Assembly: GCA_903895595.1 (NCBI GenBank)
Contig: CAITUP010000091.1
Coordinates: forward strand, 124,001-188,000
DNA: 64,000 nt
Origin: an uncultured Acetobacteraceae bacterium
GTDB lineage: Bacteria; Pseudomonadota; Alphaproteobacteria; Acetobacterales; Acetobacteraceae
Direction of reading: 5' to 3'
Shown: positions 1-18,453 of the stretch, piece by piece
Position numbering within the stretch: the first letter of the stretch is position 1
How the letters are laid out: each line of letters starts with the position of its first letter
The notes under the pieces: model-generated
What the model saw: the letters and a program-made list of their open reading frames with translations, nothing else
The model's database searches: none
What the model was told of the DNA's origin: nothing
Position numbers and translations under genes: made by a program

Positions 1-122
1 CGGCGACCCAGGCCAAGGGTCCGGCGGCGGCAAGAAGCGTGCGGCGGATGGGGGTCATGGGGAGAGCCCTTTTCAGCCCGTCATGGTCGGGTCAGGCCCG
101 ACCATTACGGGTGGTGCCTGCG

Positions 123-3100
123 TTAAGTGAAGTGCTTCACAACAATCTCCGACGGATCCAACGAAGCCGGATGCGTCGCCGACCCCAAAGTCACCAGCAC
201 CAGCGGCGCGTGCCCGGTAATATCCAGCGACAGCGTGTGCGCCGTGGCGTCGTAGACCAGCACCGGATTGGCCGGTGCCACTGGAGCATTCGCTGTCGTG
301 TAGAGGTTGACGTATTGCCCAACCCCCACCTGCACGGACCCCGACCCGGCGAAGGTCGCGCTGTCGGCGGTGGCGGCGTCGGTCAGCACCGTCTGCTCCA
401 GCGCGATGATCGGCGCGGACTCGCTGGTGGCGGCCGAGGCCCCCACGGTTTCCGTCACCACCACGCCATTGCCGATCGAACCCTCCGCCGCGTCGGCGGT
501 GAAGGCGGCACTGACGCCCGCGGTTTGCGACAGCGAAGCGCCGGACGAGGCGTAGACATTCAGTGTCGCCCCATCGACCCCGTTACCGGACACATGCACG
601 GTCCCGCCGCCGGAGGTCACGCCGATCCCCGTCGCCAGGGCCGACAGCGCGTGCCCGTTCAGCACGATATTGTCGGACTGCACCGCCGCGTATTCGGTCG
701 GCGTCAGGGACAAAGCATCTTGGGTTAGCGTGATCGTGTGCCCGTTCGCATCGAAGCCGGAGCCGAAATCCGCGAGCGCCGTCACCGCCGCCGCATTGGC
801 GTAGTCGTTGGTCGCCAGATGCAGCGTCGCACTGCCCAGGGTAAAGTTCGGCACCGCCGCCAGCGCCACGGCGGTGGCGACCGACACGGTTTCGTCGCCC
901 ACCAACGTCACGCTGGTCGCATCCACCTCCGCGGTGTGGTTGGCGGCATTGAGCAGGTAGTCGGAACTGTCCTGGATGCTCAGATCGCCGTTGTTGGTGA
1001 AGCCCGGCAGGGCGACCAAAGCGGCGGCGGTTTGCGCGTCCAGCGTTTCTGCCCCTGCCAGTTGCACATGCACATGCGATACGCCGGAGAAACCGGAGAT
1101 ATCGCCGCTGAGCACCCCGTCCAGCAGGTTGTCGGAACTGTCGGAAATCGTCAGCGTGTGGCCGTTGACGCTGAATTTCGCCGAAGTCAGCAGCGTTTCG
1201 GCATCCGCCGCCGCGACGGTGTCGTTGCCGGACAGGTTCCAGGCGGTGGCGATCGCCTCCCCGTCCGCGTTGGACGGATTGAGGATATTGGCGGCGGTGT
1301 CCTGGATGGTGACAGTGTGTCCGCCCAGGCTGAAGTGGATGCTGCTGGACAGGTTGACCAGGGATTCCGCGTTTGCGGCGGTGGTGGTCTGGTTGCTGGA
1401 AAGGGTCGTGCCGGCCAGCGCCTCCAGCGCGGCGGTATTGGCGGGGTCGATCAGGTGGGCGACGGTGTCGGCGGCGACCAGCGTGAAATCCGCGTGGACG
1501 GCGGCGTTGGACGTCCAGCCGGCCGAGCCGGTCATGGTCTGAATGTTCGCCAGGGTGTCGGTGATCGCCTCGGTATGCCCGCCGAAGGACACGTTGGCGA
1601 TCGGGATGCCGCCGTTGCCGCCGGCCAGCAGCAGCGCCAGGAAGGCATTGGCCTGCGCGACGGTCGGCGATGCGCTGTCGGTGATCGTCAGCGTGCCGGT
1701 CAGCAGGCCGGACGCGATCGTCAACGTGGCGATGTTGGCGAAGGTGTCGGTGATCGCCGTGACGACGATGGGTTTGGCCGCACCGCTTAGACCCGACACG
1801 GTGGCCACGGACCCGGCGACCCCCACCGTGTGCCCGCCCAGATGCAGCGTCGCGCCGAGACTGCCGAGCTGATTGGCCTGGGTGACGGTGGCGGTGCCGT
1901 TCGCGCCGATGGTCAGGGTGGATGCGCCGGGGCTGAACCCGGTCAGGCCGCCGAGGAAGGCTGCTCCCGCGATGGTCACCGTCGCGCTGCCGGACAGCGA
2001 CCAGGTCGTCGGCGTCAAGCTGGGGGAGCCGGATACTTGGGACGGTGCGTTGGCGATAATATTGGCGGCGGTGTCGCGCACCGTCAGGCTGGCGCCGAAG
2101 GAAGCGGTGGCGCCCAAAGTCAGCAAATCGCCATACACCGCATCGGTAACGGTGGTGCTGGCACTGACGACGATGCCGGACACCGCGGTCTTGTGGGCAT
2201 TCAGGGCGGCGAAGGCACTTTCCAGATGCGCGGCGGTATCCTGCACCGTCAGCGTGTTGGTGGAACTGTCCGGGTTGTTCTTGCTGAACCTGGGGATGGA
2301 GAACAACGCGGCGGCGGTGCTGGCGGACACGGTAGCCGTGCCGCCGACGGTTTTCAGATAAACCCCGTCGATGATCCCGGCGCTGACCGCCGCCAGATAC
2401 CCGTCGATACTGTCGGTCAGATGCGAGGCGGTGTCCCAGGCAACAAGGGTGTAACTGCCCTTCTGCAGTGCGGTCAGGGATTCCAGCGACAGCGCCTGCG
2501 ACGCGGTCACCACCGAATTCGCCGTCAGTTGCACCGTATGCGCGTTCAGGAACGTCAGCGCCGAGGCGCCGCCGGACTGGATGGTCGCGGCCAGTTGCGC
2601 CCCGGTGTCGGCGATGGTCAGGCTGCTGGCATGCAGGTTCGGGATGGTCAGCAGGCTGGACACGTACGATGCGTTCAGCGTGGCGTCGGTGATGGTGGCC
2701 GAGGAGAACTTCGCGCCGATCCCGTTCAACGCCGTCAGGTTGGACAGGATGTTGGCGGCGGAGTCGGTGACATCGACCTCCCCCACCACCGTATCGGCGG
2801 CCAGGCTGGACGATAGTGCCGCCAACTGCGCGGCGGTGCCGATGACCCGCACGGCCCCGGCGGTGGTAATCGTGTCGATGGTCGCGGCATCGGCCCCGTA
2901 GGTCGCGGCGGTGACGGTGATGGACGGGGTGTGCGCGACCCCGTCGCTCAGTGCGATCGACAGCGCGTGGCTGTGGCCGGTGACCACCGATTGCAGGTTG
3001 TTCAACGCGGCTTGCACATTGGCAGACGTATCGGTCACCGCCGCGAGGCTGGAGAAGCCAAGCGCGGGTTGCCCCAGGGCGGCGATGGCGGCGGCGGTGT

Positions 3101-6100
3101 CGGCGACGGTGATCGCGTGGCCGCCGTCGGCGAAGTTGGCGATGCCGCTAAGCGACGTCAGTTGCGCCGCGGTGACGGTGACATCGCTGGCGACCTCCAC
3201 CGTGCTGGCGGCGGCCAGGCCGTCGGCGTTGGCGGGGTCGAGCAAATGCGCGACGGTATCGGCGACGACGATCGCCGCCCCGGCGGTGAAGCCGTGCAGA
3301 TCGGCGAGTAGGGTGACGTAGGACGCGGAACTCAGAATGCCGACGCTGAGCTGCACCGTCGTCGCCAGCGCGATGCCGGCGGCGTTGGCGCTGTCCAGCA
3401 GATGCGCGGCGGTGTCGCTGACCCCCAGCGTCTGCCCGCCGCCCAGATGGCCGCCGAGGATGCTCGACAGAGTGGTGGCCTGGGCCGCGGTCAGTCCGGT
3501 GGGATTGCCGGTCATCGTCACCGCGTGCGCCGCCGTCAGCATGGCAGGCACGCCGGTGTGCGCGGTCAGCAGGTCGGCGGCGGTCCCGGTAATGGTCAGC
3601 CCGCTCTCGTTCAGCGTCGCGACACCCAACAGGGCATTATACAGGTCCGTGGCGTCGGCGACGGCCAAGGTCGCGTCGGTCGGCGTGACGCCGGTAATGG
3701 CGCTGGCGTTGGCGGCGATGACCGACGACCCGCCGGTCAGGTCGGCGATCAGATTCGCCTCGCTGTCCACCACGGTTATGTGCGCCGGAACGACGCCGAG
3801 GCCCATGATCGTGGCGATGTCCGCGACCGGCACGCCGGTCACGACCAAGGTTTCCCCGGTCATCAGCGACAGGGCCGAACCGGCTCCGTCATCGACGCCC
3901 GCGAACTGCACTTGTGCGTCGGTCAAGGTGATCGTCCCGGCCGGGCTGACGGCGATGCCGCCGATCAGGCCGAGGTTCGCCAGGATCGCCGACGCGCCGC
4001 CGGCCGCCAGATCGGCCTGGATATGCGCCGCCGTGTCGGACATCGCGATGCTGGCAGGCGTGACGAACAAACCGGCGATGCTCGGCAGCAGCGCGGCGGT
4101 GACCCCGGTGACGTGCAATGTCGCACCTGTCATCAGTGCCAACGCCGACCCGGCGCCGTCGTCCATACCCGCGATCGCGGCCTGCGCCGCCGTCAGCGTA
4201 ATGGTGCCGGCGGGGCTGACGGCAATCCCGGTAATGGCACTCAGATTGGCCAGAATGCCGGACGATCCGGATGTCAGATCGGCCTGGATATGGGCCGCGG
4301 TGTCGATGATGCCGATCTCGGTCGGAGGCACGTCCAAAGCCGCGACGATGGCGACGTCGGCGGCGAGGACATGGGTGACCGCCAGGGTCTCGCCGGTCAT
4401 TTGCGCCAACGCCGATCCGCCGGCGTCATCGATGTGGATGGCCCGCAGCTGCGTTTCCGTCAGGGTGATGGTGCCGGAGTCGCTGACCGCGATTCCTCCG
4501 ATCAGAGACAAATGCGTCACGATATGCGACGAGCCGGAGGCCAGGTCGGCCTGGATATGCGCGGCGGTGTCGCTCAGGTAGATCGTCGTCGGTGCAACCG
4601 GCAGCGTCGCCACGGTATCGATATCCGACACCGCCACGCCGGTCACGGTCAGCGTGCCACCCGACAGTTTCGAAAATACCGAACCGGCGCCGTCGTCGAT
4701 GTGCGAGGTTTCCGCCTGGCCGATGGTCAGCTCGATGGCGCCGCCGAAGCTGACCGCGATGCCGCCGATGGACGACAGATTGGCCAGGATCGCGGACGAC
4801 CCGCCGGTCAAATCCGCCTGAATATGCGCCGCCGTATCCGACACCGCGATGCTGCTCGGCGGCACGCCGAGGGCCAGAATCGTGCCGATATCGGCCACCG
4901 CGACGCCGGTCACGTGCAGCGTCAGGCCGGTCATCTTGGCTAGCGCGGATCCGCCGAAATCGTCCACGCTCGCGCCCAGCACCTGCGCCTCGGTCAACGT
5001 GATGGTGCCTGCCGGGCTGACGGCGATGGCGGAAATCGCCCCGAGATAGGCAAGGATGTGGGGCGATCCGGACACGAGGTCGGCCTGCAGATGCGCCGCC
5101 GTATCGGCGACCGCGAAGCTGTCCGGCGCCACCGTCAGCGCCCCGATCGTCGGCAGTTGGGCGGCTGTGACATGCGTCACCGCCAGCGATCCGCCGCTGG
5201 TCAGCGCCAGTACGGACGCCGGCCCGTCATCGACATGCGCCGCGAGCAGCTGCGTCGCCGTCAGCGTGATCGTGCCGGCGTCGCTGACGGTAATCGCCCC
5301 GATCAGAGACAGATTGGCCGCCAGCTGCGACGAACCGGAGGTCAAATCCGCCTGGATATGCGCGGCGGTGTCGGAGATCGACAGGCCGGTCGGGGCCACC
5401 GACAGGGCGCCGAGCGTGCCGATGTCGGAGACGAGGGCGCCGGTGACGTGGAGGGTCTCGCCGGTCATCTTGGCGAACACCGACCCGGCGCCGTCGTCCA
5501 CGTGGGCGGCTTCGATCTGCGCCACGGTCAGGGTGATCGTGCCGGAGTCGTTGGCCGCGATGGCGGAAATCGCCGAGCGTTGGGCGACCAGGACGGAGGA
5601 TCCGCCGGTCAGATCGGCTTCGATATTCGCGGCCGTGTCGGACACCGCGATGCTGTCGGGCGGCACGCCCAAGGCGAGCATGGTGCCGATGTCGGCGATG
5701 GGCACGCCGGTGACCGCCAGGGTTTCGCCGGTCATTTTGGCGAACGCCGATCCGGCGCCGTCGTCCACGCCGGCCGCCTGCAACTGCGCCTCGGTCAGCA
5801 CGATCGTGCCGGCGGGGCTGACGGCGATGCCGGCGATGTCCGCCAGATTGGCCAGGATGGCAGAGGACCCGCCGGCCAGATCGGCCTGGATGTGCGCTGC
5901 CGTGTCGGACACCGCGATGGTCGTGGGGGCGAAGGGCAGCGCCAGGATGGTGCCGATTTCCGCCGTCGTGACATGCGTGACCACCAGATCGCCACCGGAC
6001 AACAGCGCGAACACCGACCCCGCGCCGTCATCGACATGTGCCGCCAGGGCTTGGGTTTGCGTCAGGGTTACGGTGCCGGAGTCGCTGACGGCAATGCCGG

Positions 6101-9100
6101 AAATTGTCCCAACGTTAGCCACCAGCTTCGACGCGCCGGACGCCAGATCGGCCTGGATATGGGCGGCGGTATCGGAGATCGCCAGACGGGACGGCGGCAC
6201 CGAGAGAGCCTCCAAAGTCGCGATGTCGGACACCGCCATGCCCGTGACCGCCAGGGTTTCGCCAGTCATCTTGGAGAGGATGGAGCCCGCGCCGCTATCG
6301 ACATGCGCCGCCTCGGCCTGCGCCACCGTGAGGGTGATCGTCCCGCTGTCGCTGACGACGATGCCGGCGATGACGGACCGGTGGGCGAGCAGTTCGGAGC
6401 TGCCGCCGGTCAGATCGGCTTGGAGATCGGCGGCGGTGTCGCTGACATGGATCGTGTCGGGCGGTACGCCCAGTGCCAGGACCGTCGCGATGTCCGCGAC
6501 CGGCACGCCGGTGACATCGATGGTTCCGCCGGTCAGCAGCGACAGTGCCGATCCGGCCCCGTCGTCCACGCCGGCCGCTTCGATCTGCGCCTCGGTCAGA
6601 TGGATCGTGCCGGCGTCGCTGACGGCGATGCCCGCGATGGTGGCCAGATTGGTCAGGATGGCGGATGTGCCGGCGATCAGATCGGCCTGGATATGGGCGG
6701 CGGTATCGCTCAGCGCGATGTGGGTCGGCGCGAAGGGCAGCCCGACGACGGTGCCGGTTTCGGCCACCGTCACGCCGGTCACGATCAGGCCGCCGCCGCT
6801 GAGGACGGAGAACACGGACCCGGCGCCGTCATCCATATGCGCCGCCAGGACCTGCGTTTGGGTCAGCGCGATGTTGCCGGCGTCACTGACCGCGATGGAC
6901 GAAATCCCGGTCCGATGCGCCAGCAGCGCGGACGAACCGGAGGTCAGATCGGCCTGAAGATGCGCCGCCGTGTCGGAGATTGCCAGACTGTACGGCGTAT
7001 CGATCAGCGCCAAAGCGGCGTGGCTGGCGGCCAGTTGCGCCAATGTCAGCCCCAGGGCCGGCGTCCCCGCGTCGGTCAGCGCGATGGCGCCGATCGTCGC
7101 GATATGCGCCAGGATGTCGGACGCGCCGGAGGTCAGGTCGGCGTCCACGTCGGCCGCGCTGTCGCTGAGGTCGATCGCATGCGGCACCACGCCCAAGCCC
7201 GCCAACGTCGCGATGTCGGACACCGCCGCGCCGGTCACGACGATCGTGCCGCCGGTCGTTTCCGCGAGGACCGATCCGGCGCCGTCGTCGACTCCCGCGG
7301 CCTCGATCTGCGCCACGGTCAGGGAGATTGTGCCGGAGTCGTTGACGGTAATGCCGGTGACCGAACCGATATTACCCACCAGGACCGAAGAGCCGGAGCC
7401 GAGATCGGCCTGAATATGCGCGGCCGTGTCGGACACGGCGATGGACGCGGGAGGGACTCCGAGTCCCAGGACGGTGGCGATATGTGCGACGTCGACATGG
7501 GTGACGACCAGGGTCTCGCCGGTCATCAGCGCCAAAGCGGAACCGGCGCCGTCGTCCACGCCCGCGGTCAGCACCTGCGCCTGGGTCAGAGTGACCGTGC
7601 CGGCCGGGTTCACCGTAATGCCGGAAATCAGACTCCGTTCAGCGAGGATCGCCGACGAGCCGGACGCCAGATCGGCCTGGATATGCGCGGCCGTGTCCGT
7701 CACGGCGATGGACGATGGCACCACGGCCAAGCCGGCAATGGTCGAAAGATCGCTGACGGCGGCGCCGGTCACGACCAAGGTTTCGCCGGTCGTTTTGGCC
7801 AGCGCGGTTTCGACGCCGGCGGCCTCGATCTGGGCAACGGTGAACGCGATCGTGCCGGAGTCGTTGACGTCGATGCTGGCGACTGCGCTCTGGTGGCCGA
7901 TAATGCGGGATCCGCCCGCGATTAAATCGGCTTGCACGTGGGCCGCCGTATCGCTGACCGCGATGGCGGTGGGGGCGACGGGCAGAGCGGCGACGGTGGC
8001 GATATCCGCGACCGGGACGCCGGTCACCGTCAATGTGGCGCCGGTCAGCTTCGCGAACACCGACCCCGCGCCGTCATCGACATGCGCGGCGGTGGCTTGC
8101 GCCTCGGTCAGCGAAATGGCGCCGCCGCCCGTCGCGGTTATCGACGAAATCAGCGCCCGTTCGGCCACAAGTTCCGACGAACCCGAAGTCAGATCGGCTT
8201 GAATGTTTGCCGCGGTGTCGGCGATCGTCATGCTGGCGGGCGGGACACCCAGCCCCGCGACGATGCCGGCATCGGCCGCCGCGACGCCGGTCACCACCAG
8301 GGTGCCGCCGCTGAACAGCGCCATCGCCGACCCCGCGCCATCGTCCACGCCCGCTGCTCGGATATGCGCTTCCGTCAACGCGACGGTGCCGGAGTCGCTG
8401 ACGACAATGCCAGTCAGATCGGCCAGATCGCCCAGGATGACGGAACTGCCGGCGGTCAGATCGGCCTGGATATGCGCGGCGGTGTCGCGGACGGTCAGGT
8501 GATATGGCGAAGTAATCGCGGTCAGCACCGCATGATCGCTGCCCAACTGGGCGACGGAGACGGCGATGGTGGGCGTGGTGCCGTCGGTCAAAGCGATGGA
8601 GGTCACGACGGCATGGATCGCCTCCAGCCCGTCCAGCGCCGCGTTCACGTGCGCGGCGGTGTCGGAGATCGTGGCGGTGGCGCCCAGCGACACCAAAGCG
8701 GACCCGTGGGCGAGGACATGCGCCACGGTTTCGTTCGCCGCGACGATGCCGGAGATGCGGGAATGCCCGAGCATGGTCGCCAGACCGGCGGACGCGGTGT
8801 CGATATGCGCGGCGGTATCGGTGATGCTGAGTTGGACGCCTCCGCCCAGATGCGCCTGGATGGGCACCAAGGCGGCGGCGGTGGCGGCATCGGTCGCGGT
8901 GCCATCGGACAAGGCGACGGTGCCGAGGTCGCTGCCGAGCGCGGCCAGACCGCTGGCCTGGGCGGCGATGGCGGCGCCGGTGTCGCTGACGTCGATCGAT
9001 GTGCCGCCGGCCAGATCGGCCACAAGCGGGAGCAATCCGGTGGCGACGGCGACCGCGACGGGGCTGGTGTCGGTCAGCGTGATGGTGCCGAGATGCGCGC

Positions 9101-12100
9101 CCAGCGCCAGCAGGTTGCCGCTGTCGGCGACGACGTGCGCCGCGGTGTCGGACACGTTCACGGGCGAGCCGGCCAGCACCGCCACCAAGGTATGCAGTCC
9201 GGCCGCGGCATCGGCCGAGACCGCGCCCGTATCGGTGGGCGTCACCGATGCCAGATGCGCGCCCAGGCTCAGGAGACCGGCGACGTTCGCGTCGATGTTG
9301 GCGATGCTGTCGGTCACCGCGGCTTCGATCGCGAGCGACGTCAGCGCGGCACCGTTGGCGACAACGTTGGCGGCGGTGTCCGCCATGGTCAGGGTAAAGC
9401 CGCTGTTGTTGTAGTGGGACCCGAGGCCCGCGAGGAGGGTCGCCTCGGCGCCGGTCACCGAACGGCCGGCCGTGAGGATGTAGAACGGCGCGACGCTGCC
9501 CCAGTCGTGGGCGGCCGCCGTGACCAGATTGGCGGCGGTGTCGGTGACATCGATGACGCTTGCCAGCGCCACGCCGCCGGCATTCGCCGCGTCGGACAGG
9601 TGCGCGAAGGTATCCGCGACGACCAGATGGTTGCTGCCGGAGAAGGTCAGTTCGGAGGCGTTGGCCAGCGGCACCAGTTCCTCGGCTTGGGCAGCGGTGA
9701 GGCTGCTGGAGGAAATGATGCGCGCGGCGCTCGCCACGGTCAGGATCGCGGTGGCGTGGTCGGCGATGGCATCGGGGCTGTCGGCGACGACCAATGCGGC
9801 GGTGCCGCGGGTAAAGTTGGCGATGCCGGCGAGCGTATCGACCGTGGTGGTGTCGATGACGGAATCCCCGGCCAGCACCACGGACGCGGCGTTGGTCAGC
9901 AGTGGGGCGCTGGCGTTGGCCACGATATGCGCGACGCTGTCGGTCACGTCGTAGCTGGTGGCGACGGACTGCCAGCCGCCGGTGTTCAGATGCGCGAAGG
10001 TGTCGCTGACGACGATGGTGGCGCCGGTGTTGGAGAAGGCGTTCAGCGCCGCCAGACCTTGGGCCTGCGCCACGGTCAGGGTGACCGATGCGCCGGGGCT
10101 CAGGGTTTCACCGGTCGCGATGGCCTGCGCCGCGCCGGACAGCGCCGACAGGTTGGCGACCGTATCGACGATGGTTAATGTCGCTCCACCTGTGCGGGAG
10201 AAGTTCGGCAGGGCCGCCAGGGCCTCGGCGGTCGCGGCGTTGACGGTGGCGCTGGCGTTCAACACTTCGCCGCTGGCGAGACGGGTTTCCAGCGTGTTCA
10301 ATGTCGCGAGGTGTTCGGCGGTGTCGGCCACGGTCAAAGTATGGCCGTGCAGGGAGAAACGGGTGCCGAGTTCGGTCAGGCCCAGCAGGGTGGCGACATC
10401 GACGGTTTCCGATGCGACCAAAGCGAGGGTGCCGGTTTTGGCGTCGATGTCGCTGCTCAGTCCCAGCAGGGACGCGGCGGTGCCTTCGATGGTCAGGACA
10501 TGGCCACCGGTATTGAAGTCCGGATTGCCGAACAGCAGCGTGGCCTGGCTGGCGGAGGCGGTGGCGTCGCCGGACAGCGTCAGGACGGAGGCCAGCGCGA
10601 TTCCGGCCGCGTTGCCGCCGCTCAGCAGATTGGCCGGTGTGTCGGCGACGGTCAGGACGTTGTCGCCCATCAGCGCGCCGATGGCGGCGAGATGGTTGGC
10701 TTGCGCGGCGGTCAGGGTCGCATCGCCGATCAGATCGATTTCGGTTGGCACCGCGCCCGCGTTGACGGTGTAGGCGGCGAGGTGGCGGCCGGAGTCCATC
10801 ACGGTCAAAGCGTGGCCATTGAGGACGAAATGCGCGAACTCGGGCAGCAGGGCCAGGGTGTTCATCTGCGCCACGGTCGCGGTCGCGTCCTCCGACAGGC
10901 CGATGGCGGTGGCCTGCAGGATGGCGTTGTTGTGCGGCAGGCTCGCGGACCCGAGGCGCAGCAGATGGGTGAGCGAATCGGCGATGGCCAGGGCGGCGGT
11001 GCCGTTGGTCTGGAAGTTGATCAGCCCGATCAGGGATTCGGCCGCGGCGACGGACAGGGATGCGGCGACGCTGAGCTGGACACGATCCGCCAGCGCGATC
11101 CCGGCGGCGTTGGCCGGCAGCGCGAGGGAGGCAGCGGTGTCGGACACGGTGACGATGTTGGCGCCCTTGGCAAACCCGGCGATTCCGCTCAGTGCGGTGG
11201 CCTGCGCGGCGGAGATGGTCGCGTTGCCGGACAGGGTGACGGCGGCGGCGAGTGCCAGCCCGGCGGTGTCGGCGGGATTGAGTAGATTGGCGGCGGTGTC
11301 GCTGACAGTCAGCGTGTGGCCGCCGAGGATCAGGCGGCCTCCAAGCGCGGACAATTCCTCGGCCTGGGCAGCGGTGACGGTGGCGTCGCCGGTCAGGGCG
11401 ATGGTGGTCGCGACCAGCTCCCCGGCCCAGTCGTCGGGCAGAGGCCCGCTACCGGTGACATGCAGCAGGTTGGCGACGCTGTCGGAGATGGCGATATGCG
11501 CCGTGCCGGTCCCGAAGCCGGGCAGAGTCGTCAGGGATTCCGCCTGATCGGCTGTCAGGGTCGCGTTGGCGCGCAAAATGGCCGCGGTCGCGGGCGAAAT
11601 GCCGCCACTGACCAGGGTCAGGAGGTTCGCGGCGGTGTCCGACACCGTGAGCACATGGCCGTCGGTGCTAAAGTTCGGCAGCGCTTGCAGGGCCTGCAGG
11701 CGGGCGACGGACACGACGCTGTCGTCCGCGAGATCGATGGCGATGGCCAACGCGGCGGTGCCGGCGTCCAGCGTTGCCAGGGCCTTGGCGCTGTCGGCGA
11801 TGGTGATCGTATGCGTCCCGGCGGTGAACCCGGCGATCGTGTGCAGCGCGGTAGCCTGCCACGCCGCGACGGTCACGTTCGCATCGATGGTCACGGCGGT
11901 CGCGACCGCCAGCCCGGCCGCGTTGGCGGGCGCCAGCAGGTTGGCGACGCTGTCGGACACGGTCATCCCGGGTCCGGCGGAGAAATTCGGCAGGGACGCC
12001 AGGGTTTCCGCCGTCGCGGCGGACACGGTGGCGGCGGAGGTGAGCGCATAACCGGTGATTTGGCTGGCGATGCTGCTCCAATTGCCGCCGGCGGCGAGGT

Positions 12101-15100
12101 GCGCGGCGGTGTCGGCGATGGTCAGCATGTGGCCGCCATTGCTGAAACGGCCACCGAGCAGATCGAGAAGAGTGGCTTGGGCGGTGGCGATGGTGGCGTC
12201 GGCGGTGAGCGAAATGCTGCTGGCCAGCAGTTCCCCGGCCAAGTCGGCGGGGGCGATGCCGGAGGCGACCCGCACCAGGTTCGCGGCGGTGTCGGCGATG
12301 CTAAGACCGCTGCCCGTGAAGTGCGGCAGGGTGCTGAGCGTTTCCGCCTGATCGGCGGTCACCGTCGCCGGGGCGGCCAGGACGGTGCTGTCGATCGCGA
12401 TGGTGCCGCGGGTGAGCGTCAACAGATTCGCGGCGGTATCCGCGACGGTCAGCGACGCGCCGTTCTTGCTGAAGTTCGGTAGCGCGGCCAGCAGCGCCAG
12501 TTGCGCGACGCTGACGATGCCGTTGCCGGCCATGTCGATGGCGAAGGCCGTCGCGGCGGTGCCGGCGTCGAGCAATGTCAGCGGGACCGCGCCATCGACG
12601 ATGGTCAGATGGTGGGTGCCGGCGGTGAAGCCGGAAATCCCGTGCAGCCCGATGGCTTGGACCGCGTTGACCGTAGCATCGTTGTTCGGCGTCACCGAGG
12701 ACGCCGCCGCCAGCCCCGCCGCGTTGGCGGGGGCCAGCAGATTGGCGACGCTGTCGGACACGCTGTAGCCGGCCCCGGCGGAGAAGTGCGGCAATGTGGC
12801 GATGGCCTCGGCCATGCCGGCGGTCAGGGTCCAGGGCGCGCCCGTGGCGGTCAGCGTCGCCCCGCTCGCCAGCGCCAGCGCGCCGGTCGGCGCTGCCAGC
12901 AGCGCGGTGGGTGTGTCCGATACGGTCAGCACGTGCGCGCCGGTCGCGAATCCCGGCAGCGCGGCCAAGGCCTGCATCGACGAGGCCGAGACGGTCGCGT
13001 CCGCCGACAGCGTGGCGTGGCTCGCGCCTTGCGCGGCGAGCAGCGCCGAACCGGGGGAGGCGGCGGCGAACATCGCCTCCAGCAGCACCAGATTGGCGGC
13101 GGTATCCACGACCGCGATCGGGCCGGAGAACACGAGATTCGGCAGCTGGGTCAGGGCGACGAGCTGCGCCTCGGTCAGCGTGAAGCCGGCGGCGTTGAGG
13201 CCTGTCAGCGGCACAATTTGTTCCTGCGCCGCCAGCGCCAGGGCGCCGCTGGTCAGGGTCAGGAGACCGGCCGGCGTGTCGGCGACGGTCAGCGGATTGG
13301 CGTCGGCCGCGATCCCCGGCAGCGCGGCGAGCGCGTTGGCGGTGGTAGCACTGACGGTGACTGGGGCGAGCAGGCCGACGCTGCCGGCGATCGACAGGCC
13401 GGGCGCGACGCCCGACGCCAGCAGCCCGGCGGGCGTGTCGAGGACCGCCAGCACGTGGCCGCCCAGGCCGAAATTCGCCATATGCGCCAGCGTGTTGGCG
13501 ATGGCGGCGGATACCGTGGCGTCGGCGGACAGTACTGGCACGACATGGGTCGGCAGCGATCCGGTCGCGGCATTGGCGATCGTGGGCGCCAGGGCGGTCA
13601 AAGCGGCGGCGGTGTCGGTGACGGTGATGGCGTTGACGAAGCCGGCGACCGACAGGTTGCTCAGTCCAAGCAGGATGGAGAACTGGGCGGCGGAGATCGT
13701 GTAATCGGCGGCGTTGCCGCTGGTGCGGGCGACCAGCGCCTCGGTGCCGGCCAATGCCGCGACCGGCAGTCCCATCGCCGCGAGATGCGCGGGGGTATCG
13801 GCGACCGTCACCGCCTGGCCGTTGGCGGAGAAGCCGTGCAGCGCCAACAGCGCGCCGGCCTGAGCAACGGTGACCGTCGCGGGCTGCGACAATGCGACGG
13901 TGCTCGCCACCGTCTCGGCGGCGGCGGCGCCCGAGGCCAACAGGTTCGCGGCCGTATCGGACAGCCCGATCCGGTGCGTGCCGGCGGAGAAGCCGGTGAA
14001 GCCCAGCAGGGCTTGCAGGCCGGCGACGTTCAGCGTGGCGTCGGCCGTCAGTTGCACCTGGGCGTGCCACCCATTCAGCACGGATGCCGACAGGCCGGCC
14101 AACGCGGCGGCGGTGTCCTGCACCGTCAGCCCCATGCCGTTGGGGGAGAAGACCGATCCCAGGCCGATCAGAGTCGCCGTCTGGGCGGCGGTGACGACGG
14201 ACGACACCGACAACGTCACGCTGCCCGCCAACGCGATCCCGGCAGCGTTGGCCGTGCCGGCGATGTTGGCGCCATCATCGCTGACGGTCACGGTGTGGCC
14301 GTTCAGGCTGAAATTGACGAACCCGACCGCGGTCTTGATCGCCGCCAAAGCGGTCGCCCCGGCAGCCGTCACGGTTTCGGAATCCGTCACGCCCACCGCC
14401 GTCGCGTAAGTGCCGATCAACCCGGCATGCGGGATCATCGCCGCCATCGTGTCGCTGACGGTCAAGGTCGCGCCGCTCGCCAGCGAGAAATTGGGCAGGA
14501 TCGCCAGCGAGATCAGCTGCGCGACGGACGCCGTCGTGGCGCCCATCAACTGGGCGCTCGCCTGCACGATCGTGACGCCGAGGGTGCCGGCCGAACTCAA
14601 GTCGGCGAAATGCAAAGTGGGGTCGAGCAGTTGCGCCTTGGTGCCGGCGAACACCCCCGAGCTGACGGTGATGCCGGTGAATCCGCGGCCGAAAACCTGG
14701 GAAGCGAACGCGGTCAGATTGGCCCCGGTATCGGTGACCGACAGGCCGGAGGTGGCGCCGGTATAGGCCGAGGCCTGCACCGCCGACAGAACGGACCCGG
14801 TGAAGGTGCCGCCATCGGTCGCGGTCAGGGTCACCGGGCCATCGCCCTGCAGCGTCGCCAAAGCGGAGGCCGCGGCGGTCAGATGCTGGGCGGTGTCGGC
14901 GATATGCAGCGTGGTCGCCGAACCGGCTGGGATCAGTGTCAGGTGGGCGGACAGCGCCAGCAGCGCCTGCGCCTGCGCCGCGGTGTAGGTGCCGCCATCG
15001 ATCTGCGCGACCACGCGCGCCGTCCCGGTTGGCAGGCTGGACGCGGCCAGCAGATCGGCGACGGTATTCAGCACGACGATCGGCCCGGCCACGGCCAGTT

Positions 15101-16178
15101 CCGCGCCGGACATGGCGTTCAGCGCGACGAGCGAATCCTCGATTGTCAGCACCGCGCCGCCGGTGGGGACGAAGGAAGGTAAGGCCACCAGCGCTGCCAG
15201 TTGCGCGACGCTGACCGTGGCGCTGGACGTCAGATTGACCCCGACCGCCATCCCGGCGAGCGATTGCGGCAGCGCCAGCAGATTGGCGGCGATGTCGGCC
15301 AGGATGAACCCGCCGCCGGGGGCCACGGAGAAGTGCGGCAAGGACGACGCGGCCAGCAATGTGGCGGCGGAAATCGTCTCGAAATCCGCCATCGCGGCGC
15401 TGGCGCCAGGGAAGTTTTGCGCGAAGGTCGCGATGCCGCCGGCATGGGCCAGCAGCGTCGTCAGGCTGTCGCCGATCTGCAGGGCAACACCGGGCATCGC
15501 GGCGTAGCCCGCGAGAGTCGCGGCAATGGCGGAATCGGTCATCGCGGCGAACGGGCCGGTGACCGTCAACGTCGTACCGTTCGCGACCGCGAAGCTCGGC
15601 AGGTGGAACAGCGTCGCGGCAGTGGAAATATCGACGGAGGAATCGACCGACACGGTAAACGCCTTAAGCGCCGCCTTGGTTTCCTGCGGCGTTAAGGCCA
15701 GCAGATTGGCGGCGGAGTCCGCCAGGGTGACGATCTGGCCCGGCAGCACCGAAAACCCGGGCAAGGTCTCCAAAGAAATCAACTGCGCCAGCGTCAGGCT
15801 GGCACTGGCGGACAGAACGGCGCTGTTGGCATGCGACGCGAAAATCGTGCCGGCGACCGACAGCAGGCCCTCGGCGTGGTCGTAAAACGCATAAACAGTG
15901 CCCAGCGCGACGCCGGCGGCGAAGTCCGGGTCGGTCAGGTTGGCCGCCGTGTCGCGCACGATCAAACGGTTGCCGCCAGTGCTGAAACGGCTGCCCAGGC
16001 CGGCGAGCTGCGTGGCCGCGGCAGCCCAGATCGCGCCATTGCCGTTCATCGTGAACTGGCTGACCCGCGCCACCAGCGCCGTATTCGACAGCGCGGCGGC
16101 GATGTTGGCCGGCGTGTCGGCGATGATGATACCCGTGTCGCTGGAAGCACGCGCTTGTGCGATCGTCATGGTTGCCAT
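123..16178 (-). CDS. Giant repetitive surface/secreted protein (~5,351 aa), beta-strand-repeat type ('VSDTAAHIQADL' and 'VADTAANLL' repeats)
   Basis: Single uninterrupted ORF (track start 16328). Preferred start ATG at 16178 (MATMTIAQARASS) preceded by AAGGAAAA. Dense degenerate repeats throughout; no Sec signal at the N-terminus, so a C-terminal type I secretion signal is possible (inference). Confidence 0.85.
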   Translation of the reverse strand: MATMTIAQARASSDTGIIIADTPANIAAALSNTALVARVSQFTMNGNGAIWAAAATQLAGLGSRFSTGGNRLIVRDTAANLTDPDFAAGVALGTVYAFYDHAEGLLSVAGTIFASHANSAVLSASASLTLAQLISLETLPGFSVLPGQIVTLADSAANLLALTPQETKAALKAFTVSVDSSVDISTAATLFHLPSFAVANGTTLTVTGPFAAMTDSAIAATLAGYAAMPGVALQIGDSLTTLLAHAGGIATFAQNFPGASAAMADFETISAATLLAASSLPHFSVAPGGGFILADIAANLLALPQSLAGMAVGVNLTSSATVSVAQLAALVALPSFVPTGGAVLTIEDSLVALNAMSGAELAVAGPIVVLNTVADLLAASSLPTGTARVVAQIDGGTYTAAQAQALLALSAHLTLIPAGSATTLHIADTAQHLTAAASALATLQGDGPVTLTATDGGTFTGSVLSAVQASAYTGATSGLSVTDTGANLTAFASQVFGRGFTGITVSSGVFAGTKAQLLDPTLHFADLSSAGTLGVTIVQASAQLMGATTASVAQLISLAILPNFSLASGATLTVSDTMAAMIPHAGLIGTYATAVGVTDSETVTAAGATALAAIKTAVGFVNFSLNGHTVTVSDDGANIAGTANAAGIALAGSVTLSVSSVVTAAQTATLIGLGSVFSPNGMGLTVQDTAAALAGLSASVLNGWHAQVQLTADATLNVAGLQALLGFTGFSAGTHRIGLSDTAANLLASGAAAAETVASTVALSQPATVTVAQAGALLALHGFSANGQAVTVADTPAHLAAMGLPVAALAGTEALVARTSGNAADYTISAAQFSILLGLSNLSVAGFVNAITVTDTAAALTALAPTIANAATGSLPTHVVPVLSADATVSAAIANTLAHMANFGLGGHVLAVLDTPAGLLASGVAPGLSIAGSVGLLAPVTVSATTANALAALPGIAADANPLTVADTPAGLLTLTSGALALAAQEQIVPLTGLNAAGFTLTEAQLVALTQLPNLVFSGPIAVVDTAANLVLLEAMFAAASPGSALLAAQGASHATLSADATVSASSMQALAALPGFATGAHVLTVSDTPTALLAAPTGALALASGATLTATGAPWTLTAGMAEAIATLPHFSAGAGYSVSDSVANLLAPANAAGLAAASSVTPNNDATVNAVQAIGLHGISGFTAGTHHLTIVDGAVPLTLLDAGTAATAFAIDMAGNGIVSVAQLALLAALPNFSKNGASLTVADTAANLLTLTRGTIAIDSTVLAAPATVTADQAETLSTLPHFTGSGLSIADTAANLVRVASGIAPADLAGELLASSISLTADATIATAQATLLDLLGGRFSNGGHMLTIADTAAHLAAGGNWSSIASQITGYALTSAATVSAATAETLASLPNFSAGPGMTVSDSVANLLAPANAAGLAVATAVTIDANVTVAAWQATALHTIAGFTAGTHTITIADSAKALATLDAGTAALAIAIDLADDSVVSVARLQALQALPNFSTDGHVLTVSDTAANLLTLVSGGISPATAAILRANATLTADQAESLTTLPGFGTGTAHIAISDSVANLLHVTGSGPLPDDWAGELVATTIALTGDATVTAAQAEELSALGGRLILGGHTLTVSDTAANLLNPADTAGLALAAAVTLSGNATISAAQATALSGIAGFAKGANIVTVSDTAASLALPANAAGIALADRVQLSVAASLSVAAAESLIGLINFQTNGTAALAIADSLTHLLRLGSASLPHNNAILQATAIGLSEDATATVAQMNTLALLPEFAHFVLNGHALTVMDSGRHLAAYTVNAGAVPTEIDLIGDATLTAAQANHLAAIGALMGDNVLTVADTPANLLSGGNAAGIALASVLTLSGDATASASQATLLFGNPDFNTGGHVLTIEGTAASLLGLSSDIDAKTGTLALVASETVDVATLLGLTELGTRFSLHGHTLTVADTAEHLATLNTLETRLASGEVLNASATVNAATAEALAALPNFSRTGGATLTIVDTVANLSALSGAAQAIATGETLSPGASVTLTVAQAQGLAALNAFSNTGATIVVSDTFAHLNTGGWQSVATSYDVTDSVAHIVANASAPLLTNAASVVLAGDSVIDTTTVDTLAGIANFTRGTAALVVADSPDAIADHATAILTVASAARIISSSSLTAAQAEELVPLANASELTFSGSNHLVVADTFAHLSDAANAGGVALASVIDVTDTAANLVTAAAHDWGSVAPFYILTAGRSVTGAEATLLAGLGSHYNNSGFTLTMADTAANVVANGAALTSLAIEAAVTDSIANIDANVAGLLSLGAHLASVTPTDTGAVSADAAAGLHTLVAVLAGSPVNVSDTAAHVVADSGNLLALGAHLGTITLTDTSPVAVAVATGLLPLVADLAGGTSIDVSDTGAAIAAQASGLAALGSDLGTVALSDGTATDAATAAALVPIQAHLGGGVQLSITDTAAHIDTASAGLATMLGHSRISGIVAANETVAHVLAHGSALVSLGATATISDTAAHVNAALDGLEAIHAVVTSIALTDGTTPTIAVSVAQLGSDHAVLTAITSPYHLTVRDTAAHIQADLTAGSSVILGDLADLTGIVVSDSGTVALTEAHIRAAGVDDGAGSAMALFSGGTLVVTGVAAADAGIVAGLGVPPASMTIADTAANIQADLTSGSSELVAERALISSITATGGGAISLTEAQATAAHVDDGAGSVFAKLTGATLTVTGVPVADIATVAALPVAPTAIAVSDTAAHVQADLIAGGSRIIGHQSAVASIDVNDSGTIAFTVAQIEAAGVETALAKTTGETLVVTGAAVSDLSTIAGLAVVPSSIAVTDTAAHIQADLASGSSAILAERSLISGITVNPAGTVTLTQAQVLTAGVDDGAGSALALMTGETLVVTHVDVAHIATVLGLGVPPASIAVSDTAAHIQADLGSGSSVLVGNIGSVTGITVNDSGTISLTVAQIEAAGVDDGAGSVLAETTGGTIVVTGAAVSDIATLAGLGVVPHAIDLSDSAADVDADLTSGASDILAHIATIGAIALTDAGTPALGLTLAQLAASHAALALIDTPYSLAISDTAAHLQADLTSGSSALLAHRTGISSIAVSDAGNIALTQTQVLAAHMDDGAGSVFSVLSGGGLIVTGVTVAETGTVVGLPFAPTHIALSDTAAHIQADLIAGTSAILTNLATIAGIAVSDAGTIHLTEAQIEAAGVDDGAGSALSLLTGGTIDVTGVPVADIATVLALGVPPDTIHVSDTAADLQADLTGGSSELLAHRSVIAGIVVSDSGTITLTVAQAEAAHVDSGAGSILSKMTGETLAVTGMAVSDIATLEALSVPPSRLAISDTAAHIQADLASGASKLVANVGTISGIAVSDSGTVTLTQTQALAAHVDDGAGSVFALLSGGDLVVTHVTTAEIGTILALPFAPTTIAVSDTAAHIQADLAGGSSAILANLADIAGIAVSPAGTIVLTEAQLQAAGVDDGAGSAFAKMTGETLAVTGVPIADIGTMLALGVPPDSIAVSDTAANIEADLTGGSSVLVAQRSAISAIAANDSGTITLTVAQIEAAHVDDGAGSVFAKMTGETLHVTGALVSDIGTLGALSVAPTGLSISDTAAHIQADLTSGSSQLAANLSLIGAITVSDAGTITLTATQLLAAHVDDGPASVLALTSGGSLAVTHVTAAQLPTIGALTVAPDSFAVADTAAHLQADLVSGSPHILAYLGAISAIAVSPAGTITLTEAQVLGASVDDFGGSALAKMTGLTLHVTGVAVADIGTILALGVPPSSIAVSDTAAHIQADLTGGSSAILANLSSIGGIAVSFGGAIELTIGQAETSHIDDGAGSVFSKLSGGTLTVTGVAVSDIDTVATLPVAPTTIYLSDTAAHIQADLASGSSHIVTHLSLIGGIAVSDSGTITLTETQLRAIHIDDAGGSALAQMTGETLAVTHVLAADVAIVAALDVPPTEIGIIDTAAHIQADLTSGSSGILANLSAITGIAVSPAGTITLTAAQAAIAGMDDGAGSALALMTGATLHVTGVTAALLPSIAGLFVTPASIAMSDTAAHIQADLAAGGASAILANLGLIGGIAVSPAGTITLTDAQVQFAGVDDGAGSALSLMTGETLVVTGVPVADIATIMGLGVVPAHITVVDSEANLIADLTGGSSVIAANASAITGVTPTDATLAVADATDLYNALLGVATLNESGLTITGTAADLLTAHTGVPAMLTAAHAVTMTGNPTGLTAAQATTLSSILGGHLGGGQTLGVSDTAAHLLDSANAAGIALATTVQLSVGILSSASYVTLLADLHGFTAGAAIVVADTVAHLLDPANADGLAAASTVEVASDVTVTAAQLTSLSGIANFADGGHAITVADTAAAIAALGQPALGFSSLAAVTDTSANVQAALNNLQSVVTGHSHALSIALSDGVAHTPSITVTAATYGADAATIDTITTAGAVRVIGTAAQLAALSSSLAADTVVGEVDVTDSAANILSNLTALNGIGAKFSSATITDATLNASYVSSLLTIPNLHASSLTIADTGAQLAATIQSGGASALTFLNAHTVQLTANSVVTASQALSLESLTALQKGSYTLVAWDTASHLTDSIDGYLAAVSAGIIDGVYLKTVGGTATVSASTAAALFSIPRFSKNNPDSSTNTLTVQDTAAHLESAFAALNAHKTAVSGIVVSASTTVTDAVYGDLLTLGATASFGASLTVRDTAANIIANAPSQVSGSPSLTPTTWSLSGSATVTIAGAAFLGGLTGFSPGASTLTIGANGTATVTQANQLGSLGATLHLGGHTVGVAGSVATVSGLSGAAKPIVVTAITDTFANIATLTIASGLLTGTLTITDSASPTVAQANAFLALLLAGGNGGIPIANVSFGGHTEAITDTLANIQTMTGSAGWTSNAAVHADFTLVAADTVAHLIDPANTAALEALAGTTLSSNQTTTAANAESLVNLSSSIHFSLGGHTVTIQDTAANILNPSNADGEAIATAWNLSGNDTVAAADAETLLTSAKFSVNGHTLTISDSSDNLLDGVLSGDISGFSGVSHVHVQLAGAETLDAQTAAALVALPGFTNNGDLSIQDSSDYLLNAANHTAEVDATSVTLVGDETVSVATAVALAAVPNFTLGSATLHLATNDYANAAAVTALADFGSGFDANGHTITLTQDALSLTPTEYAAVQSDNIVLNGHALSALATGIGVTSGGGTVHVSGNGVDGATLNVYASSGASLSQTAGVSAAFTADAAEGSIGNGVVVTETVGASAATSESAPIIALEQTVLTDAATADSATFAGSGSVQVGVGQYVNLYTTANAPVAPANPVLVYDATAHTLSLDITGHAPLVLVTLGSATHPASLDPSEIVVKHFT
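3744..8463 (-). repeat. Intragenic tandem array of 18 units, mostly exactly 267 bp (89 aa)
   Basis: IQADL anchor codons at 3744, 4014, 4281, 4548, 4815, 5082, 5349, 5616, 5883, 6150, 6417, 6684, 6951, 7140, 7407, 7674, 7929, 8196, 8463: 15 of 18 intervals are 267 bp; the others are 270, 189 and 255, all multiples of 3. Confidence 0.93.
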
Positions 16179-16340
16179 GGTGCGGTTTTCCTTGCCTGGC
16201 CTGAGAAACTTGGCTCCGGCCCCCGAGGGGTTGCTCGCCGGTCGACAGGAAGTGTGGCAGCCAAAGGTTGACGAAAGGTTTACGCGGAACCCGAAAATGG
16301 CCTTTTTTTCGCTTATTTTCGTGAACAAAAAAGGAACTTC

Positions 16341-16356
16341 TTAACGAATGGTTAAC
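16341..16356. promoter_or_regulatory. Putative CtrA binding site (TTAA-N7-TTAAC) in a divergent promoter region
   Basis: ttaacgaatggttaac matches the full CtrA consensus; located between divergent genes starting at 16178 (-) and 16419 (+) in a locally AT-rich stretch. Confidence 0.55.
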
Positions 16357-16418
16357 AGCCCGCCGATGCCCGGACGGGTGGGGTATGACGCGCGCGGACG
16401 CTGGGCTATAGCGACCGC

Positions 16419-18341
16419 ATGCCCGCGGCACGCTCGCTGATTCGTATTGCCGTCAACGTCGCTCTGGATGCGCTCCTGGCGGCTATCGCGGTTCCAGTGG
16501 CGCGGTGGATCGCGGATCCGGCCGGCCACGCCTTCGCGCCGTTCTGGCTGATTCCGGCTGGGGCGGCGGCGCTTTTGCTCGCCGGTTTGCCATTCCGCCT
16601 GTCCCGCCAGTACTGGCGCTTCGCCGGCATCGAAGATCTTCTCACGGTCGCCGCCAGCAGCGCGGCCGGCTCGGTGTTGTTCGCCGCGATCACGATGGCC
16701 GGCGGCGCGGTGTCCGCCAACCCGGCCTTCCCCGTCGTCCACGCCTTCACACTGCTGGTGTTTCTCGGCGCCCCCCGCGTGTTCTACCGCCGCATGCGGC
16801 TGCGTGCCGCAGGGCATCCCCCGGAAGCCGACGCGGCCTCTATTCTTCTGGTAGGCGAAGGCGAGGACGCCGATCTGTTCCTGCGCGCCATGGCCCAGGA
16901 CCGCCGTCGCGCCTTTCAGGTGGAGGGGCTGCTGGCCCCGACCGCCCGCCTGACCGGACGGCGCATCCAGGGGTTCCCGATCCTGGGCTCCGTCGCCGAT
17001 GCCGGGGCGGTGCTGGAACAGTTGCGCGGCGAGGGACGGATGCCGGACATGCTGGTTATCGCATCCCCCGATCCGACGGGCGCACTGCTGACCGCCGTGC
17101 TGGCGGAGGCCGACCGCTTCGGGCTGCGGGTGCGACGGGCACCGCGGCCGACGGCGCTGGACAGCAACACCGGGGCGGACAAGGACCAGCGGCTGGAATT
17201 GAAGCCGGTCGCCATCGAGGATCTGCTGAACCGCGCCCAGGTACCGTTGGACCGCGACGGCATGGCGCGGCTGATCCAGGGTCGGCGCGTTATCGTCACC
17301 GGGGCCGGCGGCACGATCGGCAGCGAGCTGGCGCGTCAGGTCGCGGCGTTCGGACCGGCGTCTCTCGTGCTGATCGACAATGGCGAATTCGCGCTGTGGC
17401 AGATCGACCTGGAACTGGCGGAGACGCATCCCGGTGTGGCTCGCCGCACCCTGATCGCCGACATCCGCGACGAAGCCCGGATTCGCGCGGTGTTCGAGGA
17501 TGTGCGGCCGGAGCTGCTGTTCCACGCCGCCGCGCTGAAGCACGTGCCGATGGTGGAGGCGAACCCGCTCGAAGGCTTGCTCACCAACGCCGCCGGCACC
17601 CGCCACGTCGCCGACGCAGCGCGCGCGGTTGGGACTTTGGCGATGGTGCTGATCTCCACCGACAAAGCCGTAAACCCCACCAGCGTCATGGGCGCGTCGA
17701 AGCGGGTGGCGGAAATGTACTGCCAGGGGCTGGATATTCAGGCGCGGCAGACCGGCTCCGGCATGCGTTGCATCACCGTGCGGTTTGGCAACGTGCTCGG
17801 CTCCACCGGGTCGGTCGTGCCTTTGTTCCAGCGCCAGTTGGCGCGGGGCGGGCCGCTGACCGTGACCCACCCGGACATGCAGCGTTATTTCATGACGGTG
17901 CGCGAGGCCGTCGGTCTGGTCCTGCAGGCCAGCGTGCTGCGGGTGGGCGGCGCGGAACTGCCTTTGTCCAACGATGGCGGCATTTTCGTCCTCGACATGG
18001 GCGAACCGGTGAAGATCGTCGATCTCGCGCGCCAGATGATCCGACTGGCCGGGCTGCGGCCGGAGGAAGACGTGGAGATACGCTTCACCGGCCTGCGCCC
18101 CGGCGAGAAATTGTTCGAGGAACTGTTCCACGGCAAGGAACCGCCGGTTCCCACGGGGTATCAGGGCTTGTTGATGGCGTCGCCGCGGACCGCCGATCCG
18201 GCGATTGTCGGGCGTTCTTTGGATGAGATCGCCTCGGCCTGCCGAGCGGGGCAGCCTCGGTTGGCTTTGGCGTTGCTGGGGCGGCTGATACCGGAGTTCG
18301 AACATAACGCGGATGGTTCGTCCGGCGAGGTTCGGGCGTGA
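16419..18341 (+). CDS. Polysaccharide biosynthesis protein, CapD/FlaA1/PglF-type nucleoside-diphosphate-sugar dehydratase/epimerase, membrane anchored
   Basis: N-terminal hydrophobic segments, Rossmann motif VIVTGAGGTIGSELARQ, HAAALKHVPMVE, STDKAVNPTSVMGASKR. Confidence 0.9.
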   Translation: MPAARSLIRIAVNVALDALLAAIAVPVARWIADPAGHAFAPFWLIPAGAAALLLAGLPFRLSRQYWRFAGIEDLLTVAASSAAGSVLFAAITMAGGAVSANPAFPVVHAFTLLVFLGAPRVFYRRMRLRAAGHPPEADAASILLVGEGEDADLFLRAMAQDRRRAFQVEGLLAPTARLTGRRIQGFPILGSVADAGAVLEQLRGEGRMPDMLVIASPDPTGALLTAVLAEADRFGLRVRRAPRPTALDSNTGADKDQRLELKPVAIEDLLNRAQVPLDRDGMARLIQGRRVIVTGAGGTIGSELARQVAAFGPASLVLIDNGEFALWQIDLELAETHPGVARRTLIADIRDEARIRAVFEDVRPELLFHAAALKHVPMVEANPLEGLLTNAAGTRHVADAARAVGTLAMVLISTDKAVNPTSVMGASKRVAEMYCQGLDIQARQTGSGMRCITVRFGNVLGSTGSVVPLFQRQLARGGPLTVTHPDMQRYFMTVREAVGLVLQASVLRVGGAELPLSNDGGIFVLDMGEPVKIVDLARQMIRLAGLRPEEDVEIRFTGLRPGEKLFEELFHGKEPPVPTGYQGLLMASPRTADPAIVGRSLDEIASACRAGQPRLALALLGRLIPEFEHNADGSSGEVRA

Positions 18342-18354
18342 TTTTTTCACCCGC

Positions 18355-18432
18355 CCCGTCATGGTCGGGCATGACCCGTCCACCTTTATCCCATTGGCCT
18401 GACGTGGCCGGGTCAAGCCCGGCCATGACGGC
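18355..18432. repeat. Bipartite REP/BIME-like palindromic element (copy b)
   Basis: CCCGTCATGGTCGGGCATGACCCGTCCACCTTTATCCCATTGGCCTGACGTGGCCGGGTCAAGCCCGGCCATGACGG; same family recurs throughout the window. Confidence 0.85.
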
Positions 18433-18453
18433 GTATTGTCCCACGAGGTCCCC

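What the first reader, a model, noticed from the sequence alone, without database searches (positions are those of the whole stretch)
3744..8463. 89-aa repeat array with near-perfect 267-bp register inside a giant gene
Nineteen IQADL anchors give 18 intervals; 15 are exactly 267 bp and the exceptions (270, 189, 255) keep frame. Unit length is strictly maintained while sequence diverges, which suggests one repeat is one structural module. The 189-bp unit (SHAALALIDTPYSLAISDTAAHLQADL) is a distinct short variant that also appears just outside the array (HAVLTAITSPYHLTVRDTAAHIQADL, near 8465-8560), as if it marks array boundaries.
Basis: seen in the sequence. Interest (0 to 1): 0.72.

Follow-up and report, generated by a model that had tools for sequence, protein, structure and literature searches.

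The report
Giant exported protein of β/α repeats
A 5,351-residue protein, encoded directly next to its own export machine, is built almost wholly of small strand-helix repeats; the 89-residue units are predicted to be rigid three-rung modules that species gain and lose in blocks, probably to make a long surface rod that helps cells stick.

Summary
The repeat is real: 19 anchors and 18 intervals (15 x 267, plus 270, 189 and 255 bp) on the minus strand of a gene at 16178..123 encoding 5,351 aa. The rest of the protein is related ~53-aa units. AlphaFold2 on four units (pLDDT 95) predicts a continuous β/α solenoid: 53/59/63-aa units have two strand-helix rungs, 89-aa units have three. No solved structure matches at E<=0.001. 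Length changes fall almost only in loops, which explains the strict register. The short unit is not a boundary mark: one lies at the N-terminal edge, one sits inside the array after the fifth long unit in five species, none at the C-terminal edge; in two species short units fill much of the array. Units are gained or lost in blocks, often of three. A PrtD-type ABC transporter and an HlyD-type adaptor follow the gene directly. That transporter occurs in exactly the 11 of 33 congeners that carry the giant protein's C-terminus. No cysteine, pI 4.2, no RTX motif. Best reading: a dedicated type I secretion substrate forming a long surface rod, probably an adhesin. Secretion is well supported by genomics; the solenoid is a confident prediction; adhesion is inferred. 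New variant of a known kind.

The parts
123..16178 (-). Giant gene, 5,351 aa, ~517 kDa, pI 4.2, no Cys; likely start ATG at 16178 behind AAGGAA
   Evidence: upstream sequence; orthologues align from this Met; composition
8664..16178 (-). N-terminal ~53-aa repeat region (about 2,500 aa), predicted two-rung units
   Evidence: (lag 53); the last units of this region are in the model
8487..8663 (-). 59-aa short (two-rung) unit at the N-terminal edge of the array
3768..8486 (-). Array of 17 long units (15 x 89, one 85, one 90 aa) and one 63-aa unit; each long unit is a predicted three-rung beta/alpha module
6975..7163 (-). 63-aa short (two-rung) unit inside the array, after the fifth long unit; same place in five species
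6174..6974 (-). Long units 6-8: first copy of a three-unit block
5373..6173 (-). Long units 9-11: second copy of the three-unit block (the species G008 has only one)
732..3767 (-). C-terminal ~53-aa repeat region
126..731 (-). Non-repetitive C-terminal ~200 aa, conserved (61-85% over the last 400 aa in 8 orthologues); likely holds the type I secretion signal
   Evidence: no NCBIfam match
1..58 (-). Start of the PrtD-type type I secretion ABC transporter gene (558 aa, runs on as L004:14382-16058); the HlyD-type adaptor gene follows at L004:13101-14369, outside the window

Best explanation
This is a giant type I secretion substrate exported by the ABC transporter and HlyD adaptor encoded directly downstream. 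Once outside, it folds into one very long beta/alpha solenoid rod. The ~53-aa units (and the 59/63-aa ones) are two-rung pieces and the 89-aa units are three-rung pieces of the same solenoid; the length is fixed because every rung must stack on the next, so nearly only loops tolerate insertions or deletions. The array grows and shrinks by whole units, often blocks of three, without breaking the rod or the frame. The most likely role is a surface-attached or released adhesin or matrix protein whose reach depends on the number of units. Shown by computation: repeat, register, gene order, co-occurrence with the transporter, block changes. Predicted: the solenoid. Inferred: secretion, surface location, adhesion.
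For: ABC gene matches TIGR01842 (PrtD, 584.6 bits, cut-off 510) and the next gene TIGR01843 (HlyD, 324.3, cut-off 209). The ABC gene, and where the sequence reaches the HlyD gene, follow directly in the orthologues. The 69-83% identical transporter is in exactly the 11 of 33 genus genomes with the giant protein's C-terminus; elsewhere only ~40% paralogues reach the cut-off. No Cys, pI 4.2, K+R 1.1%. Conserved non-repetitive C-terminus. AlphaFold2: pLDDT 95 / pTM 0.79 for four units; pLDDT 91 over 776 residues spanning 55, 52, 59, 89, 85 and 63-aa units, the 89-aa unit differing from the 63-aa one by one extra strand-helix rung. 140 of 148 units are 89 or 90 aa, indels almost only in loops. Three-unit superperiod in G000, G021, G031, G013 (0 of 5,000 shuffles) and one three-unit block fewer in G008. 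dN/dS about 0.3 between orthologous units.
Against: No RTX motif and no match of the C-terminus to any NCBIfam model, so the secretion signal is inferred from position and conservation. No adhesive domain, membrane anchor or retention module was recognised. The outer-membrane partner is not adjacent (the next gene on the strand is Rho). The pTM of the long model is 0.49, so overall curvature is unknown. Co-occurrence counts are not corrected for phylogeny.
Confidence: 0.66

Rival explanations
1. It is a secreted surface-layer or coat protein that tiles the cell rather than an adhesive rod.
For: Type I secretion, no Cys, acidic, very low Lys/Arg; from general knowledge, alphaproteobacterial S-layer proteins such as Caulobacter RsaA use type I secretion.
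Against: Present in only 11 of 33 congeners; about 5,300 aa and variable in length between species, unlike a fixed lattice subunit; no RTX or S-layer family match.
Confidence: 0.13
2. It is a released matrix or scavenging protein (for polysaccharide, metals or ice) whose long repetitive face is itself the binding surface; no separate adhesive tip exists.
For: The solenoid runs nearly the whole length with no recognisable separate domain; conserved Asp at each DTAAH motif; polysaccharide-type sugar genes lie divergently upstream.
Against: No binding motif was tested; the upstream neighbours may be unrelated.
Confidence: 0.15
3. It is a beta-solenoid filamentous-haemagglutinin-like protein of a type V or two-partner system.
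For: Giant, repetitive, Ala/Thr/Gly/Ser/Val rich.
Against: No Pfam match to such domains, no Sec-like N-terminus by eye, alpha/beta instead of all-beta prediction, type I transporter genes adjacent.
Confidence: 0.03
4. The strict 267-bp register is a by-product of recent unit duplication with no structural meaning.
For: Unit blocks do duplicate and are lost; some units in G032 are 99% identical.
Against: Units in this window are only 48-76% identical and adjacent units are no more alike than shuffled ones, yet 140 of 148 units over the genus keep 89 or 90 aa, with indels almost only in predicted loops.
Confidence: 0.03

Closest known systems
RTX giant adhesins exported by type I secretion (LapA, ice-binding adhesin of Marinomonas; e.g. 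the 5,047-aa Aeromonas adhesin, PMC12077191)
   Same: Size, tandem repeats as a long stalk, type I secretion genes, acidic, non-repetitive C-terminus.
   Different: No RTX nonapeptides (0 GGxGxD); predicted strand-helix solenoid instead of strings of beta-sandwich domains; no recognised ligand-binding or retention domain.
BapA with BapBCD of Paracoccus denitrificans (PMC5588039)
   Same: Alphaproteobacterial giant repeat protein encoded beside its type I secretion genes; there the protein and transporter are needed for biofilm.
   Different: BapA has 891 Asp-Ala dipeptide repeats and an outer-membrane gene in the operon; here 53/89-aa repeats and no adjacent outer-membrane gene.
Leucine-rich-repeat proteins
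   Same: Open strand-helix solenoid; the best viral-library hit is an LRR protein (E 0.03) and a weak profile hit is a Rab family (Roco-type) chain that I recall as an LRR protein (E 0.03).
   Different: No Pfam LRR match, no LxxLxLxxN pattern seen by eye, no significant structural match.
Fibrillar adhesins and periscope proteins (PMC9210967, PMC8201768)
   Same: Stalk repeats varying in number between relatives, which sets the reach.
   Different: Described mainly for Gram-positive bacteria with near-identical domains; here diverged solenoid units in a Gram-negative type I substrate, and variation was seen between species, not tested between strains.

Membership tests
Type I secretion locus (PrtD/HlyD type) | ABC permease/ATPase of the type I class | tested here: met
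   TIGR01842, 584.6 bits over a cut-off of 510
Type I secretion locus (PrtD/HlyD type) | Periplasmic adaptor of the HlyD type | tested here: met
   TIGR01843, 324.3 bits over a cut-off of 209
Type I secretion locus (PrtD/HlyD type) | Outer-membrane TolC-like gene in the operon | tested here: not met
   Next gene on the strand is Rho; a TolC elsewhere in the genome was not sought, and it is often unlinked
Type I secretion substrate | C-terminal uncleaved secretion signal | tested here: inconclusive
   Conserved C-terminus but no model matches
RTX adhesin | GGxGxDxUx nonapeptide repeats | tested here: not met
   0 GGxGxD in the window's protein
RTX adhesin | Stalk of beta-sandwich (Ig-like) domains | tested here: not met
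   No Pfam match in the giant protein; strand-helix solenoid predicted
BapA | Asp-Ala dipeptide repeats | tested here: not met
   Sequence
LRR proteins | LRR family signature | tested here: not met
   No LRR model at E<=0.1
LRR proteins | LRR fold | tested here: inconclusive
   No PDB match at E<=0.001; only weak LRR hits
Fibrillar adhesin / periscope protein | Large size with tandem stalk repeats varying in number | tested here: met
   Array about 1,310 to 2,150 aa across species
Fibrillar adhesin / periscope protein | Adhesive domain and surface anchor | tested here: inconclusive
   None recognised by Pfam or NCBIfam

The most novel reading that the evidence does not exclude
The protein belongs to an undescribed class of exported beta/alpha solenoids (not LRR), made of interchangeable two-rung and three-rung pieces with a three-unit higher-order repeat that may reflect a turn of the superhelix, giving Gram-negative bacteria a rod of adjustable length without RTX or Ig-like domains.
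Probability: 0.35. Interest if true: 0.65.

Novelty: new variant of a known kind. Interest (0 to 1): 0.5.

Why it matters
Giant type I secreted adhesins are usually described as strings of beta domains with RTX calcium motifs. A ~5,300-aa substrate with neither, predicted with high confidence as one strand-helix solenoid without a match in the PDB, would add a new architecture for long surface rods. The two-rung and three-rung units, and species that differ by whole blocks, make a natural test of how solenoids change length without loss of fold.

Tried and rejected
The plasmid collection has no relative. PDB sequence hits of the array to designed WRAP-T and WD40 chains follow composition and vanish with a profile. 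Foldseek hits to TIM barrels have TM-scores of about 0.1-0.3 and show only local strand-helix resemblance. Profiles found nothing in 289 other genomes of the class (the first look scores few candidates per genome, so distant relatives can be missed) and scattered matches in 3 to 7 of 149 other genomes sampled from the family. ORFs 16341-18644 (-) and 18652-19437 (-) are antisense to real genes on the + strand. Secondary peaks at lags 48 and 41 hint at an old internal duplication of the 89-aa unit, but by eye the halves do not align convincingly; not claimed.

Full report
What is there. The finding lies in a minus-strand gene that fills the first quarter of the window (ORF 123..16328). The orthologues align from the Met at ORF residue 51, which has AAGGAA upstream, so the gene is probably 16178..123 and the protein 5,351 aa, 517 kDa, pI 4.2, 20.7% Ala, no Cys and 1.1% Lys+Arg. 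Residue numbers below count from the ORF start.

The repeat. Nineteen equivalent anchors give 18 intervals, 15 of 267 bp and one each of 270, 189 and 255, as reported. Twelve are literally IQADL, the rest close variants. Identity at lag 89 is 45.7%, against a maximum of 13.9% in shuffles. The rest of the protein is also repetitive with a period near 53. The whole is therefore one repeat family with a special central array.

Structure. AlphaFold2 with 43 own and orthologous segments gives pLDDT 95 and pTM 0.79 for four units; each 89-aa unit runs strand-helix-short helix-strand-strand-helix-strand-helix. A second model of 776 residues covers 55, 52, 59, 89, 85 and 63-aa units with pLDDT 91 but pTM 0.49, so local structure is sure and overall curvature is not. 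In it the 63-aa unit is strand-helix-helix-strand-strand-helix-helix: the 89-aa unit is the same with one extra strand-helix rung of about 26 aa. I read the 53/59/63-aa units as two rungs and the 89-aa units as three; since no coordinates were available, the rung count rests on secondary structure and sequence. Neither model has a PDB match at E<=0.001; the nearest classes are local TIM-barrel pieces and, weakly, leucine-rich repeats.

Why the register is strict. In 148 long units of this and related genomes, 77 are 89 aa and 63 are 90 aa. Length changes fall almost only after unit position 11, around 28-31, around 49-53 and after 59, which are predicted loops or ends of strands. The single 85-aa unit lost the DDGAG loop and the 90-aa unit gained a residue in the first loop. 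Orthologous units have dN/dS about 0.3.

The short unit. A 59-60-aa unit precedes the array in most orthologues, but the 63-aa unit sits inside it, after the fifth long unit, in G000, G002, G008, G010 and G026. In G030 and G018 short units alternate with ~87-aa ones over most of the array; G021, G031, G032 and G013 lack the inner short unit. It is a building piece, not a boundary mark.

How the array changes. Long units 1-5, 6-8 and 12-17 match G008 in order, but G008 has one three-unit block where this genome has two (6-8 and 9-11). G002 also has 12 long units after the short one, mostly in register, so a loss in G008 is the simpler reading. Similarity at unit distance three exceeds all 5,000 shuffles in G000, G021, G031 and G013; G032 shows seven-unit blocks; G008 and G002 show no such excess. 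Adjacent units are not more alike than shuffled ones and in G000 are less alike (99.7% of shuffles reach the value at distance one). That fits the known tendency of neighbouring tandem domains to diverge, thought to limit misfolding (PMC4660218), but block duplication alone would also produce it.

Context. The next gene, 64 bp downstream, is a PrtD-type ABC transporter and then an HlyD-type adaptor. The same genes follow in the orthologues where the sequence reaches. In the genus the 69-83% identical transporter is found in exactly the 11 of 33 genomes with the protein's C-terminus. The C-terminal ~200 aa are not repetitive and are well conserved. This is the layout of a dedicated type I substrate. 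On the other side, divergently, lie genes for a polysaccharide-type nucleotide-sugar enzyme and a DegT aminotransferase; a link is possible but untested.

Function. No enzymatic or adhesive domain was recognised. By analogy with BapA of Paracoccus, where loss of the protein or of its transporter makes the cells deficient in biofilm (PMC5588039), and with fibrillar adhesins whose stalk repeat number sets reach (PMC9210967, PMC8201768), I think a long adhesive or matrix rod most likely. Type I export is about 0.85 likely, the beta/alpha solenoid about 0.85, adhesion about 0.6.

Membership. It is not an RTX adhesin (no RTX motif), not BapA (no Asp-Ala repeats), not a recognised LRR protein. It works like the first two.

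Noticed in passing
window 20097-24233 (+): 1,378-aa protein with NQSGGTISG / VNAGSIAGN repeats (beta-helix-like by eye) and a C-terminal Hint_2 domain (E 3.9e-33): a second likely exported repeat protein near the giant gene.
   Followed up: partly
window 16419-19590 (+): Divergent neighbours: Polysacc_synt_2 nucleotide-sugar enzyme and DegT/DnrJ aminotransferase, a pair often seen in amino-sugar synthesis for surface glycans.
   Followed up: partly
L028 (G031:C24:11465-13630): In G031 the giant protein's C-terminus (profile positions 1-363 of 398) and the ABC transporter from residue 196 on share one open frame: an apparent in-frame fusion with loss of the end of one and the start of the other. 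Assembly error or real fusion not decided.
   Followed up: no
G007:C49:45630-55478: A congener without the dedicated transporter has a 3,857-aa open frame with distant relatives of the repeat (E 1.5e-26), perhaps a second class of giant protein.
   Followed up: no
L027 (G032): Unit similarity peaks at distance seven (and three, four), with units up to 99% identical: recent duplication of a seven-unit block.
   Followed up: partly
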